Source: Flavobacterium noncentrifugens (GTDB lineage Bacteria > Bacteroidota > Bacteroidia > Flavobacteriales > Flavobacteriaceae). Taken from it: 64,000 bases of DNA. The stretch covers positions 620,001-684,000 of the forward strand of contig NZ_FNEZ01000002.1 of assembly GCF_900100375.1 (NCBI RefSeq). The letters are read 5' to 3'. Shown here piece by piece: positions 27,927 through 47,277 of the stretch. Position numbers and translations under genes: made by a program. Position 1 is the first letter of the stretch. The number at the start of each line of letters is the position of its first letter. The notes under the pieces were generated by a model. It searched no databases. It was not told where the DNA came from and was given only the letters and a program-made list of their open reading frames with translations.

Positions 27927-28092
27927 AATTCAAAAGTATTAATTGTGGTTGAAACGCAGTAAATGTAAAAAACATAAATGAAAATGTAGGATACAGATGG
28001 AAATGATTCGGTACATGAACCGGTCTTTTTTACTTGCAGCCTTTAACAAAAATACAATTTTTCAAATATGTTTTACTTTAAAATTACAAATT

Positions 28093-29811
28093 ATGGATTT
28101 TACTTTGAGAATTCCAAATGACTTGCCGCAGCGGCAGACGTTGGAGCAGGCCATTAAGATTTTACTGACTTATGTTGATGTAGGATCGGTTTACGTTTCC
28201 CGTGGCCATGAGAACGGTATCCCTATCATGGTCACCTTTATACTGAAAAAGAATTGCGGACAAAGCGGCGATGCGGTAGCGCGACTTTCACAGAAAGTAA
28301 CGCGGGCTTATCCTGATTTTACCTTTCATTTCTTTAATGCTACGGTAGCTTCGCAAGAATTTAAAGAGGGCAGGCCGTATTTTTACCGGCATTGTACTTT
28401 GTTAGAGTTGGTATATCACGAGCCTGGCAGTAAAGTGTATTATCCTACTTTTTTCAATGCAAATAAGGTGATTAAGAAGGCTTTTGAGTATACCGGAGAT
28501 AAAAGCATTGCTAAAGACTACGTCATAAAAGCTGATGTCTATATCACTATGGACGATAATCTTGCCGCCGCCAATTATCTCCATAGTGCGTTATGGTATT
28601 TGTATTCGTGTGTCTGCGAAATGACATTGCCTGAAGGGGAAGGCCAGGAAAGTTTGTTGCAACATTATGAACTAGCAGTTGGTGTTGCTCCATCACTCAA
28701 GGCATTCCTTGATAAGCAAGATCCGGATGATAATCAAATCCTCGAAACATTATGCACAGCCGAGCGTTGCTCCAAAGGAAATTATAATATGGCTGCTATT
28801 CCGGTCTCCCTTCTTGAAAAAGCGAAAAGCAAAATCCGATCCATTAAGTGGGAAGCTAGCAAGATTATCAAAAATTATTCAAAGACAATCAAGGCGAAAG
28901 CTGATTACATGAACAACCAATTGTTCCTTGGCAAAGCATTTACAGCAGGCCACCTGCAACTCAATTATATCATGGCGCAGGTGCTGGCAGAAATATGCGG
29001 CATCATTGCCGAATTGCTACCAACGCGTGCCATTTACTGTTTTGGATATACTACTTGCCCTATAAATGAAGAGGGCAAAAAAAGCGGATTCACGAAAGAC
29101 TTTCCGGGCTATCATTTTTATGTATTGGTACACTCCAGGGAAAACCGCGAAGATATAACGGCTTTAATCCAGGCTGCGGTAAGAGACCGATTTGAAGGCA
29201 AACATCGGGTGACTATCCTTATCCACCGGATAAAAAATATTCGGAAGCAAAGCCATAACCAAATGTATTTCTTTGAAAATGTAGTAAACAGAGGCTTGCT
29301 TGTTTACAACGACACGCAGCTACCGGTAAATTTCATACCTGAAGGATTGACCAAGGATCATGACCATTCCAAAACTTTTTGGCAGAATCGTATCATGGCG
29401 GCGACGCAACTGTTGGATTCCGCTGCTGAATTAACCACAAATGACCAGGCACTTTTAAAGAACACTTTATTACACCAGGCCACGGAGCAGGTTGCGTTAG
29501 GGATTATTGAATTGTTTTTGGGCTACCATCCCGCAACACATTCCCTTGCTTGTTTGTTATCGCTTGTTGCATTTACGCAGGAAATTGAAATTCCGTTTGG
29601 TAATACGACCGAGCAGGAGCAACGGCTTTACCAACTGCTTACCGCGCATGTTGGTGCATTGCGCCACTACGACCTGAAGCTTTACCATATCGCCGACAGC
29701 AATGTGCTTTTCGTCCAATGCCAGACTTTTCTTGAAGATGCCAGGCGAATTGGCAACACAGCAATCAAACTTTTAGAATCAACAAATATTCAACTTACTC
29801 AATTATCATAG
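28093..29811 (+). CDS. Tandem NT-HEPN-like protein (degenerate nucleotidyltransferase)
   Basis: 572 aa from ATG 28093 (MDFTLRIPND). It holds two units of the same plan. Unit 2 is clearer: a nucleotidyltransferase-like part (AIYCFGYTTCPINEE, then YHFYVLVHS and FFENVVNRGLLVYND), followed by a HEPN helix bundle (LLHQATEQVALGIIELFLGY, HPATHSL, RLYQLLTAHVGALRHYDLKL). In active relatives the first motif is FGSYARGD and the strand is YDLLVV; here the GS and DxD residues are lost, so catalysis is unlikely. HEPN proteins include RNases of toxin-antitoxin and defence systems. Unit 1 (VYVSRGHENGIPIMVTFIL) is more divergent. Two bases separate it from the next, related gene. Confidence 0.65.
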   Translation: MDFTLRIPNDLPQRQTLEQAIKILLTYVDVGSVYVSRGHENGIPIMVTFILKKNCGQSGDAVARLSQKVTRAYPDFTFHFFNATVASQEFKEGRPYFYRHCTLLELVYHEPGSKVYYPTFFNANKVIKKAFEYTGDKSIAKDYVIKADVYITMDDNLAAANYLHSALWYLYSCVCEMTLPEGEGQESLLQHYELAVGVAPSLKAFLDKQDPDDNQILETLCTAERCSKGNYNMAAIPVSLLEKAKSKIRSIKWEASKIIKNYSKTIKAKADYMNNQLFLGKAFTAGHLQLNYIMAQVLAEICGIIAELLPTRAIYCFGYTTCPINEEGKKSGFTKDFPGYHFYVLVHSRENREDITALIQAAVRDRFEGKHRVTILIHRIKNIRKQSHNQMYFFENVVNRGLLVYNDTQLPVNFIPEGLTKDHDHSKTFWQNRIMAATQLLDSAAELTTNDQALLKNTLLHQATEQVALGIIELFLGYHPATHSLACLLSLVAFTQEIEIPFGNTTEQEQRLYQLLTAHVGALRHYDLKLYHIADSNVLFVQCQTFLEDARRIGNTAIKLLESTNIQLTQLS

Positions 29812-29813
29812 CC

Positions 29814-31058
29814 ATGGAACATACAATCAAAATACCTGAAAACCATCCGGAGCATGCACTTTTATTAAAAACGGTAACTACCTTACTGGAATTTCTTCCA
29901 TTGCATTCGGTTTACGTTTCGACAAACAGTGATTTAACAGATAAAACTATTGTTACCCTGTTTCTTTCGGAATACTGTGAAGAGGAGTCCAATACCATTT
30001 CTCCTTTGGTTGCGAGAGTGTTCGAACCCCTGCCAAACTTTTCGTTTACGCTTTTTGAATATTGGTGGGCAGAATGTCTTTGGAAAGAAGGCAGTCCGTT
30101 TTTTATGCGCCACGCTACAGCGGACGAACTTGTGTATTGTTCGGATCCTGACAACAGGATTTTTAGTACTAAAGATCCCGACATCAAAAAGCGGCTCAGG
30201 AAAGCCACCGTATTTTACGACAACCAACATGTGGAAGCCTCCGGGTTTTTACGGCATGTCACCTTTTACAGCCGTTACGGAAAGCTTGCCGAAGCTGCGT
30301 TCCATCTGCACCAAACATTGCAGGCTACATATTTTATCGTGTCATGGCTGACGACCGGTGATACTTTTACAAATGAAAGTCTGATGGAACAACAGCGGCA
30401 CGTCGCGGATTTTGCACCGTACTTTGGAAAACTGTTTGATCCTGAAAATGCGGAAGAATGGGAGGCGTTGATACAGCTGGACAATTCGTGTAAAGTGGTC
30501 CGTTATGACCACACGCATGAGTTTACGGTGGAAGCAATTGTACTTGCAACAGAAAAAACTGAACTGATGAGAAAGGAGGCTTATAAATTGTTTAAGGAAA
30601 TTATTGCGAAGTGTAAGGCAAAAGGCAATGACGAAGCTAAAGTGATATTGGATGCGCCAGACAGCAATGCGGAAACGACAACAGATGAGCCCGATCGTAT
30701 TGACCTTAATCCCGACGTCCAAAAATTCGCTGATGATTTGACAAGAATTGCATATTTCAGAACCCTGATGCCACACAATTGGAAGCCGGGAATTTTTCAG
30801 GCGAGACTGGAATTTTACAGCTATTCTAATTTGGGCTATGTAATCGGCGACCTTATGAAAATTGCCATGCACACGATTTATAATGATGGCTCACAGAATT
30901 CAGGTGAAGTAATAGATCCGAGCAGCCATGTTGCAAGCTTGCTGGAAGTTATCGATCAGTTGTTGCCGCTAAGTGAATTTGAAATGCTGGATGGCTGCCA
31001 TGAATTGTATTTGAAGCTTGAGGCGGAGAAAAAGACTAAAGAATCAGATTGTCAATAG
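29814..31058 (+). CDS. NT-HEPN-like protein, paralogue of the upstream gene
   Basis: 414 aa. The first ~270 residues follow unit 1 of the upstream protein: LLEFLPLHSVYVSTNSDL, EGSPFFMRHATADELVY (compare GRPYFYRHCTLLELVY), a HEPN-like helix set (AAFHLHQTLQATYFIVSWL) and CKVVRYDHTHEFTVEAIVL. A shorter third helical part completes it. The nucleotidyltransferase residues are missing here as well. The pair is an operon and probably acts as a complex; the target is unknown. Confidence 0.6.
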   Translation: MEHTIKIPENHPEHALLLKTVTTLLEFLPLHSVYVSTNSDLTDKTIVTLFLSEYCEEESNTISPLVARVFEPLPNFSFTLFEYWWAECLWKEGSPFFMRHATADELVYCSDPDNRIFSTKDPDIKKRLRKATVFYDNQHVEASGFLRHVTFYSRYGKLAEAAFHLHQTLQATYFIVSWLTTGDTFTNESLMEQQRHVADFAPYFGKLFDPENAEEWEALIQLDNSCKVVRYDHTHEFTVEAIVLATEKTELMRKEAYKLFKEIIAKCKAKGNDEAKVILDAPDSNAETTTDEPDRIDLNPDVQKFADDLTRIAYFRTLMPHNWKPGIFQARLEFYSYSNLGYVIGDLMKIAMHTIYNDGSQNSGEVIDPSSHVASLLEVIDQLLPLSEFEMLDGCHELYLKLEAEKKTKESDCQ

Positions 31059-31275
31059 CAATCAATAGAATTTGCGTGGCATGAAACTGGATAAATTCGC
31101 CGGTTAAATAAAACCCGCCTTTTTTGTAAACAATCGTCAATAATCCTATTGGGCTAAAACAAAACAAATCAATTTAATATCAATAACAACATAAATTTTT
31201 TGGCGTCAGTCATTACTCTAAGTTAATAAAATTTAATTATTTTCCACTTTTAGTAACTCAGAGTAATTTTTTTTA

Positions 31276-31283
31276 TATATTTG
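31276..31283 (+). promoter_or_regulatory. Candidate -7 element (TATATTTG) of the retron-like unit
   Basis: A perfect TAnnTTTG match directly upstream of the structured leader. It would place the RNA start near 31290. No clear TTG -33 is seen. Confidence 0.5.
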
Positions 31284-31289
31284 TACCAG

Positions 31290-31770
31290 TTCTTTGAAAT
31301 TGTTTCGAGTCTGATATGAGTGAAGTATCCTTATAGCTTAATTTTTTTAAGCAACCCGTATGGGTGAAGTAACGACAACAGCTGTACAGTATCACCGCGC
31401 GACCGCCCTCAAAGCGTGAACCGCCATCGATTCAGAAGGACGCCTCGTGCGAACGTCTGAGGAGAAGCCTGCATTTGAGCAAGTAGTGAAGTAGCCGGAA
31501 ATAAGCGATTAAACGCTTTCCGATGCCGAAATGCCTACAATGAAGCAAGGCTGATGATCTGTTATAAAGCGATTTACATTTAAGCCGCATTTTGAAGTAT
31601 TTCAATTTGACCAAATCGCATTAAAGTTTAAGTCATTGTTCCAAAGTTTTTAATAGGAGCAGAATTTTTAAGGTTGTGAATAGAGAACATTGTCTACGCA
31701 CAGAGTATCAGGCGTTTTTCCGGCATGAGCAGGAACGGAATAGTCCGTTCTGATAACTCAAAAAAAAATA
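31290..31770 (+). ncRNA. Candidate structured RNA (msr-msd-like) of the retron-like unit
   Basis: About 480 bases without a convincing gene but with many perfect stems: GCTTAA/TTAAGC (31336-31352), ACCC/GGGT (31354-31365), CGGAAA..GCG/CGC..TTTCCG (31496-31522), GCGATTT/AAATCGC (31569-31619) enclosing TTGAA/TTCAA (31592-31605), and GAACGGA/TCCGTTC (31733-31750). TGAAGTA recurs at 31321, 31365 and 31486. It is G/C-richer than its flanks. A promoter-like motif precedes it and the reverse transcriptase operon follows, which is the place of a retron RNA template. The boundaries, branching G and msd hairpin are not determined. Confidence 0.5.
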
Positions 31771-31775
31771 CAATT

Positions 31776-32021
31776 ATGTCGAGATTAAAAAGAAATCGAA
31801 ACATTGATGACCTCGTGAACGCGATCGAGGCCGTCAAATCAAAGTGCCAGTGTTCTCTTTCGGAACAAGACTTAACAGTTTTAAATGATGCTATAGCAAG
31901 GCTGCGGCCGCTGAAAAGTAGGAAGGGGTTAACAGACAAACATCTCAAACAAGAGGTTGAAAAAATTGTCGAAGTAATTCTAGTTTATTTTCTACCCACG
32001 CGAAACCAAAGTTCCATTTAG
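31776..32021 (+). CDS. Small charged helical protein of the retron-like unit
   Basis: 81 aa from ATG 31776 (MSRLKRNRNIDDLVNAIEAV). It contains a KCQC pair and alternating charged helices (DAIARLRPLKSRKGL, KHLKQEVEKIVEVIL). Not a known family to me. It lies between the structured leader and the XRE gene (31 bp upstream of it). A longer reading from 31725 would start inside a perfect hairpin and is rejected. Accessory subunit or regulator of the unit is the likely role. Confidence 0.5.
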   Translation: MSRLKRNRNIDDLVNAIEAVKSKCQCSLSEQDLTVLNDAIARLRPLKSRKGLTDKHLKQEVEKIVEVILVYFLPTRNQSSI

Positions 32022-32052
32022 ATTCCGACACACCTTATTTATTTTTTATATC

Positions 32053-32343
32053 ATGGATTTAGGCACAGTCATAAAAAACATTAGAAAAGATCGGCAGCAT
32101 ACTCAATCTGAGCTCGCTGCTCTATGCGATATAACTCAAACTTATTTATCACAGATCGAATCTAACAAAAAAGAACCCAATCTCTCTACCTTGAAGGAGA
32201 TCAGTAGACAGTTGAATATCCCGTTGCCGGTGATGTTTTACATGTCGATAAATGAACAAGACGTTTCTCCCGAGAAAAGAGAAGCGTTCAATTTAATAAA
32301 TTCACCACTTAAAAATTTGATCGGTGACGTCTTCGGATTATAA
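32053..32343 (+). CDS. XRE-type helix-turn-helix protein coupled to the reverse transcriptase
   Basis: 96 aa. The HTH_3 domain fills residues about 5-60 (IRKDRQHTQSELAALCDITQ, then YLSQIESNKKEPNLSTLKEI, LNIPLPVMFYMS). Its last 20 bases overlap the GTG start of the reverse transcriptase, a sign of translational coupling. Published retron surveys describe a type in which an XRE-like protein accompanies the RT (type VI from memory). It could repress the unit or act as its effector or antitoxin part. Confidence 0.8.
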   Translation: MDLGTVIKNIRKDRQHTQSELAALCDITQTYLSQIESNKKEPNLSTLKEISRQLNIPLPVMFYMSINEQDVSPEKREAFNLINSPLKNLIGDVFGL

Positions 32344-33178
32344 GAAAAATCAATTCAAAAGGGTTGCAGCTCTCATAAATATGTCCGTTGATCGGGTTGC
32401 ATTCATCATAGGAAATATTGAAGATTTTTACCGTGAAAAAAGTGAAAAAAAGATCGATAAAAAAACCGGTGATTTTAAATGTTATAAAGACGGTACACTA
32501 AAAATACGCACCATCCACCCGTCACAAGGTGAATTGAAACTGGCACAGCAAAGGTTAAAAAACCGATTTTTTGCGGGAATTCCATTGCCGCATAATGTTC
32601 ATGGAGGTATACGAAAAAAAAGCAATATAACAAATTCTAAAACTCACCAAGGCAATAAATATATTTTGGCTACCGACCTACAAGAGTTTTACCCTTCGAT
32701 TTCTTCAAAAATGGTTTACGATTGTCTTTTGTCGCTTGGAAATAACAGTCACGTTGCAAGTCAAATTACTAAGTTAGTTACCTATAGGCATAAAGTTCCA
32801 CAAGGTGCGCCGACAAGTACGCATGTTTCAAATGTTGTATTTCTAAAAACAGATCTGCTTTTAATCGACTTTTGCAAAAAGCACGGAATTACTTATACGC
32901 GTTATGTTGATGATCTTACATTTTCTTCGCAGCAGGACTTCAGACATTTAATTGCACAAATTCTAGGCATAGTACTTTCAGGCGGTTTTAAATTAAGCTT
33001 TCGCAAAACTCTATACTCAAACGAACAGACAATTACAGGGATTGAAGTGTTTTTGAATAAAATCGATGCCCCGTTAAAAATTATAGAGCGTGCCTTGACG
33101 GAAATAGATATGCCAATCAAACCAGTTACTAATTATTTGGAAAGCATTAGAAGGACTAATAATAAGATCTGGAGATAA
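32324..33178 (+). CDS. Retron-type reverse transcriptase
   Basis: 284 aa. The motifs come in order: a region-X-like NSKTH (residues 104-108, retron consensus NAxxH), motif A with catalytic Asp (ATDLQEFYPSIS, D118), PQGAPTS (159-165), the YVDD catalytic box (194-197) and ITG (237-239), matching the retron region-Y VTG. These set it apart from group II intron and DGR enzymes; no maturase domain follows. The GTG start at 32324 keeps the usual N-terminal helix; ATG 32381 would lose it. Retron RTs reverse-transcribe a neighbouring structured RNA into msDNA and mostly act in anti-phage defence. It is short for the family but complete. Confidence 0.88.
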   Translation: MTSSDYKKNQFKRVAALINMSVDRVAFIIGNIEDFYREKSEKKIDKKTGDFKCYKDGTLKIRTIHPSQGELKLAQQRLKNRFFAGIPLPHNVHGGIRKKSNITNSKTHQGNKYILATDLQEFYPSISSKMVYDCLLSLGNNSHVASQITKLVTYRHKVPQGAPTSTHVSNVVFLKTDLLLIDFCKKHGITYTRYVDDLTFSSQQDFRHLIAQILGIVLSGGFKLSFRKTLYSNEQTITGIEVFLNKIDAPLKIIERALTEIDMPIKPVTNYLESIRRTNNKIWR

Positions 33179-33626: not shown

Positions 33627-36600
33627 ATGAACCAACCGCAACAGTTTAGCCTCGAAATACCATTTGAGGCAAGTTTTAAATTAGACGAACCGCTTTATTA
33701 TTTTAAAGATTCTAAAGATTGCGGCAGCTTTCGCCAAGTAGCCCTTAAAGCTGGATCGCATAATTTAACATTAACACATAAGAAAGATTCTGTTTATCTG
33801 GTACTTGATGTTGAAGGAAATTCCTTTACAGCTTCGGTTACTTTTAAACAAGGGATTTATAAATTTAGTGGCTTAGCCGAGCATTCTATTGAATATTCGA
33901 AACAAGATTTTAATTTATATAGGAATGGAACAAATGGTTATTCTTTAAGACCTGCTCAGTCTGGAGCTTTGTATTCTCTATTGTCCCATTGGTCTTTAAG
34001 TTATGATGCATGCACTATCGTACTTCCAACTGGGACTGGAAAGACGGAAACCATGTTGGTAGCGGTATTAGCGGATAATGCGCAAAGGGTATTGGTAGTC
34101 GTTCCGACAAAGGATTTAAAAAGGCAGTTGTCTCAAAAATTTGAAACTTGGGGTATGCTGCGACAACTAGGAGTAATAAGCGGCGCTACTTCAAACCCCA
34201 AAGTGCTTATATTGGATAAAATTATTTCCAGTCCTAGGGATATATTAGATATACAATCAGCAGAAATAATTGTCACTACTCCGGGCTTAATTGCGAGGGC
34301 AAGTTTCTCACTACTGGAAGCATTGAAAGGTACTTTTTCCCATATTTTCTTTGATGAGGCACATCATGTTGCAGCGACGGGCTGGGAAAGAATAAAGACA
34401 CAATTTGGAGATTCAAAAATTGTGCAATTTACGGCAACTCCATTTAGAAATGACAAGAAGCCAATAGAAGGCAAAATTCTCTATAATTATTCTCTAGCAA
34501 GAGCATTAAAGGACAATTGTTTTTCAAAAATTTCTTTGATATCGGTTGATGAAAGACATCCTAAAAGAAAAGATAAAGCAATCGCTGACGCTGCGATACA
34601 AAAACTTAGAGAAGACAGGTCAAATGGATGGACCAGGCATAAGGTTATGGTCAGGACTGAAAAGAGCAAACATGCGGAAGAACTATATAAGAGCTATAAA
34701 GAATGGTTTCCTGATGAGAGAATTGTTGTAGTTCACAATGAAACGAAAGCGCAGGCAAAGATTGTTGAAGAAATAAAAAGAGGCCTATATGATATTGTCA
34801 TATGTGTTGATATGCTTAAAGAGGGTTTTGACTATCCTGATTTTAAAATTGCAGCTGTACACAAGCTTCATAAATCTTTGGCTGTCCTGCTCCAGTTTAT
34901 TGGGCGATTTACCAGGACGCAGGAAGGTTTGGGAGATGCCTCATTTGTTGTAAATTTTGCAGATGAAAACTTATCTGTGGAATTGGAGAATTTATTGCAG
35001 GAAGGTTCTGGATGGGAAGAAGTTATCAGTGAAATAGCAGATGCCAGAAAGGCAGACGCGGAATCTTTGTTATCTTTTTTACAGGGTTGCAAACCTTTTT
35101 CAGGTTTTGATTCTCCTGATACAAAGTTAAACCCGAAGCTTGTTTATCCTGCCTTAAGTTGTATGTGCTACAGAGCAGCGAAGGTTGATTGGAATAATTT
35201 TAAATTTGCATTCAATCTTTCTAAATACGCTATTGCTCAGCCATATTATAACCCTGATGAAAACGTTTTTTATTTTACCACTCAGAAAAGAGAGAAGGTA
35301 AAATGGGCCAGAACAGATAAGCTGCGTGATCAGACTTGGAATTTAGTAGTAATACATTTTGATGCTGTGTCGCAATTGCTTTATATCGGATTTTCAGAAA
35401 AAACGCTGGAAATAGATAAATTAGTAGAATGCCTCACCGGATCCAAGCCAGATCGCGTGTCGGGAGATCCTGTTTTCAGAGCATTTGACTCGATAAATCG
35501 ACTAAGTATAGTGCATGCAGGGATTTTTAAGCCAGCTAGTCATTTGCATCGTTATTCAAGATTAAGCGGTTCAGATGTTACCACAGAACTAAGCAGGTGG
35601 AAAAGCGGAACAAGATGCCAGAAATCCGATTTTGTAGGAGTGGGGTTTAGAGATGGTTTTCCTGTAAGTGTTGGCGCCTCGGTTAAAGGGAAAATTTGGA
35701 GCCCGGCAAGAGTTGGTGATTTAAAGCAATGGAAATCATGGTGTATTCAGATAGGTAAACTTATTACTGATGATTCGATAGATTCGAATAAGTTACTGGA
35801 AGATTCTGCTGAAAAGACTGAGTTGAAGCTTTATCCTGACAACCTAATTGTAATGGCTTGTGATTGGTCAGAGGAACTTTATGATAAAATACATAAAATT
35901 ACAGTCAGTTCAGGTTCAGTTTCTTATCTGCTTAGCGAGGCATATATTAAGCTTTTAAGTGCTAAGGATGATAAGGCACATTTTGTTTTTTATCTTCAGA
36001 ATGAGAAGATAGAATTTAGCATCAGGCTAGGAGGTGAAAGAGGGCATAGTATTGAGGGATTGGATAAGAGCCGTTTTTTTGTTGAAGGATTAAGAAGCGA
36101 GCCAATGGAGTTAAAAGAATTCTTTGAAAAGTATCCGCCCACGATGTTCCTATTAAATGGCGACACTATCGCGGGATGTATTTGGACTCAATATACCCAA
36201 GTTTCTGCTGTCAGGATTCCTGATGACAGAATTGAATCCCTAAGATGGGAAGAAGTCCAATACAGTACTGAGTCGATGTACAAAGGAAGCTTACAGCGTA
36301 AAAATTCTGTGCAGGAGTATATGATGAAAAGATTAGTTAGCCAAGGAGCAAAAGTAGTTTTTAATGATGATAATTCAGGGGAGTCAGCTGATGTAGTTGC
36401 AATATTTCATGATGCAGATACCATCAGATTTGAAATGGTGCATTGTAAATATTCAAAAAATACTGCCGGTTCCAGGCTTTCAGATTTATATGAAGTCTGC
36501 GGACAGGCTATTGTGTCCTTACGGTATAAATGGAAACCAGAAGAATTGTTAAAACATATGGAAAGGCGTGATAATACAGGCGTTTTAAAAGGAAGAAGAT

Positions 36601-36803
36601 TTTATTATGGAACTAAAGATGATATTGAGAATATTAGAAAGGCGCTTCGATATAGCGAGGTAAAGTTTGAATTTGCAGTAGCGCAACCAGGTGTAAATAT
36701 TAAACAATTAAACGATGAGATGACGGATTTCTTAAGTTCTGTATATTCAACGGTTGTTGACATGACAGAAACCAAATTGAAATGTTATTTTAATAGTAAA
36801 TAG
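33627..36803 (+). CDS. DEAD/DEAH helicase with C-terminal nuclease-like domain
   Basis: 1058 aa. Superfamily 2 motifs: I LPTGTGKT (133-140), Ia VVPTKDLKRQL, II FFDEAHH (DEAH 243-246), III QFTATPFRND, V DMLKEGFDYPDFKIAAVH and VI QFIGRFTRT. After a long middle region a restriction-endonuclease-like fold seems to follow (about 890-960): VQEYMMKRLVSQG, ESADVVAIF and FEMVHCKYS, which gives an E/D..E.x.K-type core. The plan fits restriction or anti-phage helicases acting on DNA. It is the only gene between the two ~190-bp direct repeats, so it arrived as a one-gene island. Family and target remain open. Confidence 0.75.
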   Translation: MNQPQQFSLEIPFEASFKLDEPLYYFKDSKDCGSFRQVALKAGSHNLTLTHKKDSVYLVLDVEGNSFTASVTFKQGIYKFSGLAEHSIEYSKQDFNLYRNGTNGYSLRPAQSGALYSLLSHWSLSYDACTIVLPTGTGKTETMLVAVLADNAQRVLVVVPTKDLKRQLSQKFETWGMLRQLGVISGATSNPKVLILDKIISSPRDILDIQSAEIIVTTPGLIARASFSLLEALKGTFSHIFFDEAHHVAATGWERIKTQFGDSKIVQFTATPFRNDKKPIEGKILYNYSLARALKDNCFSKISLISVDERHPKRKDKAIADAAIQKLREDRSNGWTRHKVMVRTEKSKHAEELYKSYKEWFPDERIVVVHNETKAQAKIVEEIKRGLYDIVICVDMLKEGFDYPDFKIAAVHKLHKSLAVLLQFIGRFTRTQEGLGDASFVVNFADENLSVELENLLQEGSGWEEVISEIADARKADAESLLSFLQGCKPFSGFDSPDTKLNPKLVYPALSCMCYRAAKVDWNNFKFAFNLSKYAIAQPYYNPDENVFYFTTQKREKVKWARTDKLRDQTWNLVVIHFDAVSQLLYIGFSEKTLEIDKLVECLTGSKPDRVSGDPVFRAFDSINRLSIVHAGIFKPASHLHRYSRLSGSDVTTELSRWKSGTRCQKSDFVGVGFRDGFPVSVGASVKGKIWSPARVGDLKQWKSWCIQIGKLITDDSIDSNKLLEDSAEKTELKLYPDNLIVMACDWSEELYDKIHKITVSSGSVSYLLSEAYIKLLSAKDDKAHFVFYLQNEKIEFSIRLGGERGHSIEGLDKSRFFVEGLRSEPMELKEFFEKYPPTMFLLNGDTIAGCIWTQYTQVSAVRIPDDRIESLRWEEVQYSTESMYKGSLQRKNSVQEYMMKRLVSQGAKVVFNDDNSGESADVVAIFHDADTIRFEMVHCKYSKNTAGSRLSDLYEVCGQAIVSLRYKWKPEELLKHMERRDNTGVLKGRRFYYGTKDDIENIRKALRYSEVKFEFAVAQPGVNIKQLNDEMTDFLSSVYSTVVDMTETKLKCYFNSK

Positions 36804-36930: not shown

Positions 36931-37128
36931 GGCTTTTTATTCAGCGGAGAAAAAGGGATTATTTTCATTGATCCCAATGAGGGGAGTCCTGCAAAGAAAA
37001 ACCAACCGCCTGTCGGCGCTTACGTTTTTTTGTTTTCTGTCCGCTTACGAAAGCGAGCTTTCGACGCAGTCATAAAACAAAAAAACCGAAACTCACGTTT
37101 CGGTTTTTCTTTGCGGAGAAAGAGGGAT
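36931..37128. repeat. Right ~190-bp direct repeat, ends inside tRNA-Ser
   Basis: The partner of 33201-33390. It contains a GCGGAGAAAAAGGGATT box at 36944-36960 and ends in the tRNA-Ser 3' end (GCGGAGAAAGAGGGATT at 37112-37128). Four such boxes (33216, 33378, 36944, 37112) lie in the same orientation, pointing to at least two integration events at this tRNA. Confidence 0.75.
37072..37108 (-). terminator. Terminator of tRNA-Ser
   Basis: CCGAAAC (37085-37091) pairs with GTTTCGG (37096-37102); on the minus strand a run of T follows. The same hairpin is duplicated at 33350-33367. Confidence 0.7.
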
Positions 37129-37198
37129 TCGAACCCCCGGACCTGTTACAGTCAACAGTTTTCAAGACTGCCGCAATCGACCACTCTGCCATTTCTCC
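37113..37198 (-). tRNA. tRNA-Ser (anticodon UGA)
   Basis: 86 nt. The acceptor stem GGAGAAA/TTTCTCC, discriminator G, D-arm with GGCAGAGTGGTCGA, anticodon stem CAGTC/GACTG-like around CTTGAAAA (TGA anticodon), long variable arm typical of Ser and GGTTCGAATCC T-arm are all visible. CCA is not encoded. Its 3' end is the integration site of the neighbouring island. Confidence 0.95.
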
Positions 37199-47089: not shown

Positions 47090-47277
47090 AAAAGGAATTT
47101 TGTCGTTGGTTTTGCGCCCGCGTTAGGGATGGAAGCGAAAATCCTTTTTAAATTTGTAATCCTAGCATTTGAAATTAAAAGAAGAATATCCGGCAGAGGT
47201 TTAGGCATCTGGGGCGAAAAGACTTTTACAAATTTAAAAAGATTGCAGCGGACAGCCCGGCCGCAGGCAACGCCCAA
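47090..47277. repeat. Dispersed Flavobacterium-type intergenic repeat with 16-bp inverted arms
   Basis: CTTTTTAAATTTGTAA (47144-47159) and TTACAAATTTAAAAAG (47226-47241) are perfect inverted copies, 66 bases apart. They lie in a G/C-rich frame (GCGCCCGCGTTAGGGATGG.. and GCAGCGGACAGCCCGGCCGC) that I recall from many Flavobacterium intergenic regions. The open frame 47038-47277 is only this repeat. Confidence 0.65.

What the first reader, a model, noticed from the sequence alone, without database searches (positions are those of the whole stretch)
31276..33178. Retron-like unit with an unclassified two-protein accessory set
Seen: a TATATTTG promoter motif, a ~480-base leader with at least five perfect stems, an 81-aa protein, an XRE protein and an RT with NSKTH, D118, YVDD and ITG at retron-like positions. 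Known: retron RTs carry NAxxH before motif A and VTG after YxDD and lie behind a structured RNA. Inference: the leader is msr-msd and the two small proteins are effector or regulator. I recall a retron type with an XRE partner (type VI), but the 81-aa protein is new to me.
Basis: partly seen in the sequence, partly recalled or inferred. Interest (0 to 1): 0.85.

Follow-up and report, generated by a model that had tools for sequence, protein, structure and literature searches.

The report
Type VI retron with antisense-wired gene
This is a bacterial retron (a reverse-transcriptase immune element) of an already catalogued type, and comparison of its relatives shows that its non-coding RNA base-pairs with the message of its own small partner protein, which suggests a way that this poorly understood retron type could control that protein.

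Summary
The unit is real and is a type VI retron. Its three proteins hit PADLOC's three type VI models: the 81-aa protein SP_VI (3e-29), the XRE protein HTH_VI (1e-28), the RT RT_VI (8e-62). The leader is not unusually stable (z -0.42), but relatives show a retron ncRNA: its 5' arm pairs with its 3' arm (a1:a2) with strong covariation (0 of 5000 row swaps reach it). Two further links tie this ncRNA to the small-protein mRNA. First, a 10-nt leader element (b) pairs with fixed codons of the small protein (b'), and the pairing survives sequence change (all ten pairs canonical in 36 of 43 loci; 20 same-branch co-changes). Second, a repeat (r1) in the predicted template recurs as r2 in the small-protein 5' UTR and the two change together (0 of 5000), so msDNA reaching r1 would be antisense to that UTR. 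I infer that RNA and msDNA gate the small protein, a type-I-toxin-antitoxin-like retron. msDNA, toxicity and phage defence are untested.

The parts
31253..31283 (+). promoter with TATATTTG -7-like box (31276-31283); upstream an imperfect palindrome (window AGTAACTCAGAGTAAT, close relatives about TATTAACTGnCAGTAATA), possible HTH operator
   Evidence: sequence; upstream stretches listed, where by eye ATTAAC is present in 21 of 25 close loci with sequence there (not in the window, L099, L102, L109); operator role is inference
31289..31713 (+). predicted type VI retron ncRNA (msr-msd), 5' end GTTCTTTGA to end of a2
   Evidence: conserved 5' end and a1:a2 covariation in relatives; energy alone not better than shuffles
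31309..31322 (+). a1 arm (GTCTGATATGAGTG)
   Evidence: pairs with a2; 22 thinned loci, own mean -15.7 against swapped -9.35 kcal/mol, 0 of 5000 swaps reach own
31657..31663 (+). r1 repeat (GAGCAGA), in the predicted template, 3' arm of a local hairpin in relatives
   Evidence: direct repeat of r2, co-varying over loci; hairpin r1':r1 covaries
31683..31692 (+). b element (GAGAACATTG), just 5' of a2, first bases of the predicted cDNA template
   Evidence: complementary to b'
31699..31713 (+). a2 arm (CACAGAGTATCAGGC), end of ncRNA
31727..31734 (+). r2 repeat (GAGCAGGA) in the 5' UTR of the small protein, start of a hairpin 31730-31752
31776..32021 (+). small protein SP_VI, 81 aa, predicted three-helix bundle, probable effector
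   Evidence: PADLOC SP_VI 3.3e-29; AlphaFold pLDDT 86.3, pTM 0.73
31848..31857 (+). b' element (CAGTGTTCTC) inside the small-protein CDS (Gln-Cys-Ser codons)
   Evidence: pairs with b; codon-level constraint; covariation
32053..32343 (+). HTH_VI, XRE-family protein, 96 aa, probable autorepressor
   Evidence: PADLOC HTH_VI 1e-28, Pfam HTH_3 4.6e-15
32324..33178 (+). retron reverse transcriptase RT_VI, 284 aa (GTG start, overlaps the HTH end)
   Evidence: PADLOC RT_VI 8.4e-62; best PDB relative Ec86 RT 2e-24

Best explanation
A type VI retron. One promoter probably drives an ncRNA leader, a small protein (SP), an XRE protein and the RT. Supported by comparison: (1) the ncRNA is closed by a1:a2 with the SP gene just behind it; (2) element b, next to a2 where reverse transcription should begin, is complementary to fixed SP codons (b'); (3) repeat r1, further along the template, recurs as r2 in the SP 5' UTR. 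Inferred: SP is the effector. Before reverse transcription the ncRNA acts through b as an antisense RNA on SP codons. Reverse transcription consumes b and makes msDNA whose r1 copy is antisense to r2 near the SP start, blocking translation or guiding RNase H. The b:b' duplex also masks the template start, so translation of SP would free the template and trigger the msDNA that shuts SP off (a feedback loop). Phage interference with RT, msDNA or RNase H would release SP and arrest the cell; the XRE protein represses the promoter. My odds by layer: type VI membership 0.97, b:b' pairing 0.93, r1/r2 link as nucleic-acid homology 0.75, antisense control of SP 0.45.
For: Type models. a1:a2: own -15.7 against swapped -9.35 kcal/mol, 0 of 5000; control stretch 1385 of 5000. 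b:b': the unbiased best complement between the last 150 nt of the leader and the first 180 nt of SP starts exactly at the motif codon in 33 of 43 loci, 9 of 14 in distant loci; the HTH gene as control has no constant site and a lower score, 19.05 against 23.41, SP higher in 37 of 41; all ten pairs canonical in 36 of 43; on an RT tree of 38 loci 376 of 380 pairs canonical and 20 same-branch changes over ten pairs, against 5, 1, 0 over nine, eight, seven pairs in shifted registers, with pair 9 changing 7 times in b and 7 in b', all 7 on the same branch. The idea came from close loci and was then met in distant ones with other letters. Codons at b' in 28 close loci, near-identical ones included: Ser TCT 28 of 28, Cys TGT 27 of 27, Gln CAG 20 of 21, and a nearby Ser TCG 26 of 27, although TCG is 31 of 378 Ser codons in the RT stretches counted. 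r1/r2: 40 loci own 8.47 against swapped 6.53, 0 of 5000; 12 distant loci 1 of 5000; upstream control windows 1533 and 4588 of 5000. Engineered retron msDNA aimed at a start region lowered that protein by about 75% (Mao 1995 as told in PMC6868368; passages).
Against: No msDNA, toxicity or defence data. Seven of 43 loci (L037, L038, L044, L045, L118, L120, L140) lack a full ten-pair b:b', and L120 has lost the leader pattern. a2 can also pair with a stretch before the SP start (0 of 5000, but weak in several loci), so other RNA switches are possible. In the window the r1/r2 repeat is only six identical nt, the shortest of 28 close loci; in L119, L036, L038 and L050 the best-scoring match is not the repeat seen by eye or is very short. 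SP has no significant fold match (best Foldseek E 1.4) and no known toxin family.
Confidence: 0.5

Rival explanations
1. b:b' and r1/r2 serve ncRNA folding, processing or RT control rather than SP silencing: SP codons form a pseudoknot with the template start and regulate when reverse transcription begins; SP then acts on, or is held by, the RT-msDNA complex as a protein, as in other retrons.
For: The order a1<b<a2<b' makes b:b' a pseudoknot with a1:a2 (positions); b adjoins the predicted start of cDNA; effectors of known retrons are described as held by the RT-msDNA complex (PMC12548924, start of abstract in the listing; PMC12948488, passages).
Against: Does not explain r2 at a nearly fixed place, 40-51 nt before the SP start in 25 of 28 close loci.
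Confidence: 0.25
2. r1 and r2 are two copies of a binding site for one protein (RT, SP or HTH); SP or RT binds r1 in the ncRNA and r2 in the SP leader, a translational feedback by mimicry.
For: Part of the repeat, GCAGG, is a common core; SP is a small helical protein with more K and R than D and E (by eye; for the helices).
Against: The copies share up to 14 identical nt (L107), and in the Bacteroidales group L049 and L124 differ by the same one-base indel in both copies (read by eye), which fits nucleic-acid homology better.
Confidence: 0.17
3. r1/r2 allow template jumping, giving tandem cDNA copies as in DRT2.
For: Direct repeats flank a template of 54-117 nt; in 7 of 11 distant loci the repeated unit would be an endless open frame on one strand or the other (one of them, L050, rests on a chance match and is closed with its visible repeat).
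Against: In the window (unit 70 nt) and in 26 of 28 close loci no endless frame exists, and only 7 of 28 units are a multiple of three; the RT is of retron, not DRT2, type.
Confidence: 0.08
4. An ordinary retron in which the leader-CDS complementarity is a by-product of protein conservation.
For: The SP motif (N-R/Q-C/S-S) is conserved as protein.
Against: Pair 9 swaps the amino acid (Q against R in close loci) together with the leader base, 7 of 7 changes on shared branches; synonymous sites are frozen; distant loci keep pairing with other letters.
Confidence: 0.03

Closest known systems
Type VI retron (PADLOC models RT_VI, HTH_VI, SP_VI; classification of Mestre et al. 2020, which the PADLOC paper cites; the typing paper itself is not held)
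   Same: All three protein models, same gene order, ncRNA upstream.
   Different: Nothing tested sets this locus apart except a longer leader (488 nt from AGTTCTTTGA to the SP start; 279-434 nt in the 26 other close loci where the start was found). The RNA links to SP were in no text I could find.
Retron Ec86 and other solved retrons
   Same: RT relative (E 2e-24), a1/a2-closed ncRNA.
   Different: Their effectors are described as held by RT-msDNA as proteins; here SP appears wired to the ncRNA by base pairing.
Engineered antisense retron (Mao 1995, told in PMC6868368, passages)
   Same: msDNA antisense to an mRNA start region.
   Different: That one was man-made; here the arrangement would be natural and aimed at its own operon (inference).
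Type I toxin-antitoxin systems (recalled)
   Same: Small-protein mRNA paired by an antisense RNA of the same locus.
   Different: Antisense element lies upstream on the same strand, with a reverse transcriptase and a DNA copy.
DRT2
   Same: RT with a structured RNA and repeats near the template.
   Different: Different RT group; no endless open frame in the window or in 26 of 28 close loci.

Membership tests
Type VI retron | RT of the type VI group | tested here: met
   RT_VI 8.4e-62, next RT_III-A 4e-47
Type VI retron | HTH (XRE) partner | tested here: met
   HTH_VI 1e-28
Type VI retron | small protein partner | tested here: met
   SP_VI 3.3e-29; SP ORF with the motif found by script in 45 of 61 loci examined, Bacteroidales-type SP of another sequence in ten more
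Retron | NAxxH in region X and VTG in region Y | tested here: inconclusive
   window has NSKTH and ITG, so the letters differ at one place each; N104, H108 and T238 are invariant and G239 nearly so in 14 RTs; PMC6868368 passages allow similar outliers
Retron | 8-30 nt complementary 5' and 3' ends of the ncRNA (a1/a2) | tested here: met
Retron | priming guanosine at the end of the a1 arm in TAGC, CAGA, CAGC, GAGC or ACGC | tested here: inconclusive
   an AG (GAGT, AAGT, CAGT, GAGC, GAGA) lies within three bases behind a1 in relatives, AAGT in the window; priming base not mapped
Retron | msDNA produced, 2'-5' linked | not testable with these tools
   -
Retron | anti-phage effect | not testable with these tools
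   -
DRT2-like concatemer system | repeat-flanked template giving an endless open frame | tested here: not met
   window unit 70 nt, closed; closed in 26 of 28 close loci; open in 7 of 11 distant loci, so not excluded there
Type I toxin-antitoxin (works like) | antisense nucleic acid pairs with the small-protein mRNA | tested here: met
   pairing by covariation only; effect on translation not tested
Type I toxin-antitoxin (works like) | small protein is toxic | not testable with these tools
   three-helix bundle, no significant fold match

The most novel reading that the evidence does not exclude
Type VI retrons are natural antisense-DNA/RNA toxin-antitoxin systems: the ncRNA silences the small-protein mRNA through b:b' before reverse transcription, and the msDNA silences it through r1-copy:r2 afterwards, with translation of the small protein itself licensing reverse transcription. 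This would be a retron whose antitoxin acts on the effector's message, not on the effector protein.
Probability: 0.38. Interest if true: 0.88.

Novelty: new member of a known kind. Interest (0 to 1): 0.64.

Why it matters
I found no account of how type VI retrons work in the papers I could search (the typing paper and the experimental census are not held). The comparison gives the ncRNA ends, named pairing elements and single-base predictions, so the type becomes directly testable. If msDNA really is antisense to the effector message, retrons would have a second mode of control besides holding an effector protein, and there would be a natural precedent for antisense DNA made in the cell.

Tried and rejected
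Rfam, gathering and permissive: no family for the leader reached its gathering score. Single-sequence folding: not better than shuffles. Repetitive-gene (DRT2-like) reading of r1/r2: no endless frame in the window or in 26 of 28 close loci; open in 7 of 11 distant ones, so rejected only for this clade. RNA switch in which the 5' hairpin arm pairs with r2: no covariation (2808 of 5000). SP fold search: nothing under E 0.001; PDB profile search: best E 0.0054, to 14-3-3 helices, taken as chance. GTTCTTTGA as an rRNA boxA-like element (recalled): the primer-like 16S pattern had no match and the 16S record begins inside the gene at a contig end; no match in the stretch seen; left open. Phage collection: 47 and 48 records, best identity under 60%. 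Viral contigs: 41 and 2 loci; only L052 was examined for SP and HTH, and has both.

Rows dropped before counts: L123 and L133 as duplicates of L040 and L039. L037, L044 and L120, all poor pairers, were left out, which favours the reading; L131 and L134 were left out of the tree because no full RT frame was recovered. In some searches b was picked as the best complement in the leader, which inflates the pair count in distant loci; one search is the unbiased version. Near-identical loci (L100/L104, L101/L106/L111, L107/L110/L115, L112/L114) stay; searches used 22 and one search used 23 thinned loci (L107 and L115 both kept). Row swaps do not remove relatedness between loci.

Full report
What is there. 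The window holds, in order on the + strand, a TATATTTG promoter box (31276-31283), a leader of about 490 nt, an 81-aa ORF (31776-32021), a 96-aa XRE ORF (32053-32343) and a 284-aa RT (32324-33178, GTG start, overlapping the XRE end). The RT has one match in the 4.03-Mb genome. PADLOC models assign the three proteins to SP_VI (3.3e-29), HTH_VI (1e-28) and RT_VI (8.4e-62, next best RT model 4e-47). So this is a type VI retron, and the 81-aa protein is a catalogued part of that type. The nearest solved RT is that of retron Ec86 (2e-24). NCBIfam's best RT model is a retron family (7.6e-40, below its curated cut-off); its DRT and group II models score 9e-10 or worse.

Relatives. SP_VI is rare: 11 of 395 genomes across the phylum, 8 of 397 in the family and 7 of 395 in the order at E 0.001 or better, the window's own genome included and several of these weak and probably false. 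Searches with the RT alone or with a close RT alignment brought plasmid loci from Riemerella anatipestifer, Bacteroides uniformis and Aureispira anguillae and 50 loci from named genomes. Of 61 loci examined by script, 45 carry a motif-bearing SP ORF upstream of the RT. The other 16 are ten Bacteroidales-type loci with an SP of different sequence and no XRE gene in between, and six in which the script found none.

The ncRNA. Close relatives share the promoter, the 5' end GTTCTTTGA and two small hairpins, then a variable part, then a conserved block before SP. A 5' arm a1 pairs with an arm a2 behind the conserved block. In 22 thinned loci the locus's own a1:a2 duplex averages -15.7 kcal/mol against -9.35 for swapped partners, 0 of 5000 permutations reach it, and a neighbouring stretch used as control gives 1385 of 5000. 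In 13 of 22 rows no swapped partner is better than the own one. A second helix (c1:c2, 5 of 5000) and a local hairpin around r1 (0 of 5000) are also supported. The unconstrained fold of the window leader contains the a1:a2 stem, but its energy is no better than shuffled sequence (z -0.42, 34 of 100 shuffles). By the description in PMC6868368 (passages) such paired ends, with a priming guanosine at or just behind the first arm, belong to a retron msr-msd. In the window a1 is 31309-31322 and a2 is 31699-31713, so the ncRNA ends about 60 nt before the SP start.

First link to the SP message. Just 5' of a2 lies b (31683-31692, GAGAACATTG). It is complementary to b' (31848-31857, CAGTGTTCTC), which spans the Q-C-S codons of SP; the repeat finder also lists this pair (I3). 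In 28 close loci (near-identical ones included) the b' codons are almost frozen at synonymous sites: TCT 28 of 28, TGT 27 of 27, CAG 20 of 21, then TCG 26 of 27, although TCG is 31 of 378 Ser codons in the RT stretches counted. In seven close loci b has C for T and b' has G for A, which swaps the amino acid, R for Q. After seeing this in close loci I looked at 14 distant ones. Many have the same pairing with other letters, such as ACGAACAACG:CGTTGTTCGT in L052, ATGAACTACG:CGTAGTTCAT in L050 and ACGAATCACG:CGTGATTCGT in L126. An unbiased search for the best complement between the last 150 nt of the leader and the first 180 nt of SP puts it exactly at the motif codon in 33 of 43 loci (9 of 14 distant ones); own pairs beat swaps (0 of 5000; distant loci alone 3 of 5000). 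The XRE gene as control gives lower scores, no constant place, and loses to SP in 37 of 41. All ten pairs are canonical in 36 of 43 loci; the misses are L037, L038, L044, L045, L118, L120 and L140. On an RT tree of 38 loci there are 32 changes in b, 29 in b' and 20 on the same branch, against 5, 1 and 0 for registers shifted by 1, 2 and 3 (which hold nine, eight and seven column pairs); pair 9 changed 7 times on both sides, each time together (dropped rows are named under Tried and rejected).

Second link. A repeat r1 in the predicted template (31657-31663) recurs as r2 in the SP 5' UTR (31727-31734). The two copies change together: AGCAGG with AGCAGG, CGCAGG with CGCAGG, TGCAGG with TGCAGG, CACAGG with CACAGG, up to 14 identical nt in L107. 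Over 40 loci the repeat score is 8.47 against 6.53 for swaps (0 of 5000); over 12 distant loci 7.50 against 5.96 (1 of 5000). Two control windows further upstream give 1533 and 4588 of 5000. In close loci r1 ends 16-20 nt before b in 27 of 28 and r2 begins 40-51 nt before the SP start in 25 of 28; in distant loci these hold in 5 of 11 and 4 of 11. Since reverse transcription copies r1 into its complement, msDNA reaching r1 would be antisense to r2. The 5' arm of the r1 hairpin does not covary with r2 (2808 of 5000), so a simple RNA switch does not explain the repeat. In the window the repeat is short (six identical nt, the shortest of the 28 close loci).

The Bacteroidales group. In L049 the copies read TTTTAGGCACGTG twice and in L124 TTTTAGCACGTG twice, so even a one-base indel is shared (by eye). 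The best leader:SP complement is ACAATGGA:TCCATTGT in six of nine loci examined, near-identical to each other, with score 19, which is no more than the HTH control mean of 19.05; L135 has a 13-nt match at the same codons with score 28.0, and in L136 and L138 the best match lies elsewhere. This group is therefore weak support for b:b' and better support for r1/r2.

How it may work. Supported by comparison: ncRNA ends, b:b' pairing, co-variation of r1 and r2. Inferred: cDNA starts beside a2, so b is the first part copied. Before copying, b can act as antisense RNA on SP codons and b' masks the template start. Copying removes b and yields msDNA carrying the complement of r1, which can bind the SP leader. 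That an msDNA antisense to a start region lowers the protein made by about 75% was shown with an engineered retron (Mao 1995 as told in PMC6868368, passages). SP is then the effector, freed when a phage disturbs RT, msDNA or RNase H. SP is predicted as a three-helix bundle (pLDDT 86.3, pTM 0.73) with no significant fold match, so its target is open. The XRE protein probably represses the promoter at an imperfect palindrome.

Novelty. The locus is a further member of type VI. The RNA links were in none of the papers that nine searches brought up, of which I saw listings and, for a few, passages (passages). The library lacks the typing paper and the experimental census and says that it holds no bioRxiv preprints of its own, so they may be in print elsewhere.

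Noticed in passing
window 31315-31600: The window's leader is longer than in close relatives and repeats the stretch behind a1: TATGAGTGAAGTA (31315), TATGGGTGAAGTA (31359), AGTGAAGTAGCC (31485) and TGAAGTAT (31593). Possible duplication of the priming region.
   Followed up: no
leader starts of type VI loci, window 31289-31297: GTTCTTTGA directly behind the promoter recurs in close and distant loci; it resembles an rRNA boxA-type antitermination signal (recalled), or could pair with b.
   Followed up: partly
window 33627-36803: Large protein of 1058 aa with ResIII/helicase domains, RadD-like in its helicase part but far below that model's cut-off, directly behind the retron; a tRNA-Ser lies at 37113-37198. 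Possible defence or repair gene in an insertion site.
   Followed up: no
window 27997-31058: Two consecutive ORFs (604 and 414 aa) before the retron with no Pfam or PADLOC match up to E 0.1 and no NCBIfam match over a cut-off.
   Followed up: no
L049 and other Bacteroidales loci: A type VI-like group without the XRE gene and with a lysine-rich SP (MAKKKKKPSKRGKK...), sharing near-identical sequence between different genera, one copy on plasmid pBUN2 with a site-specific integrase gene nearby: probably mobile.
   Followed up: partly
L048 (Riemerella anatipestifer plasmid, NZ_CP073240.1): Type VI retron on a plasmid between an IS30-family element with floR and an IS1 element; the upstream part of its leader was not recognised and may be cut by the IS.
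   Followed up: no
distant type VI loci L032, L039, L040, L052, L126, L131: The r1-to-r2 unit is a multiple of three and endlessly open on one strand or both; may be chance, but a tandem-copy product is not excluded in that part of the family.
   Followed up: partly
window 47111-47266: Flavo-1 RNA match (49.9 bits), consistent with a Bacteroidota host.
   Followed up: no
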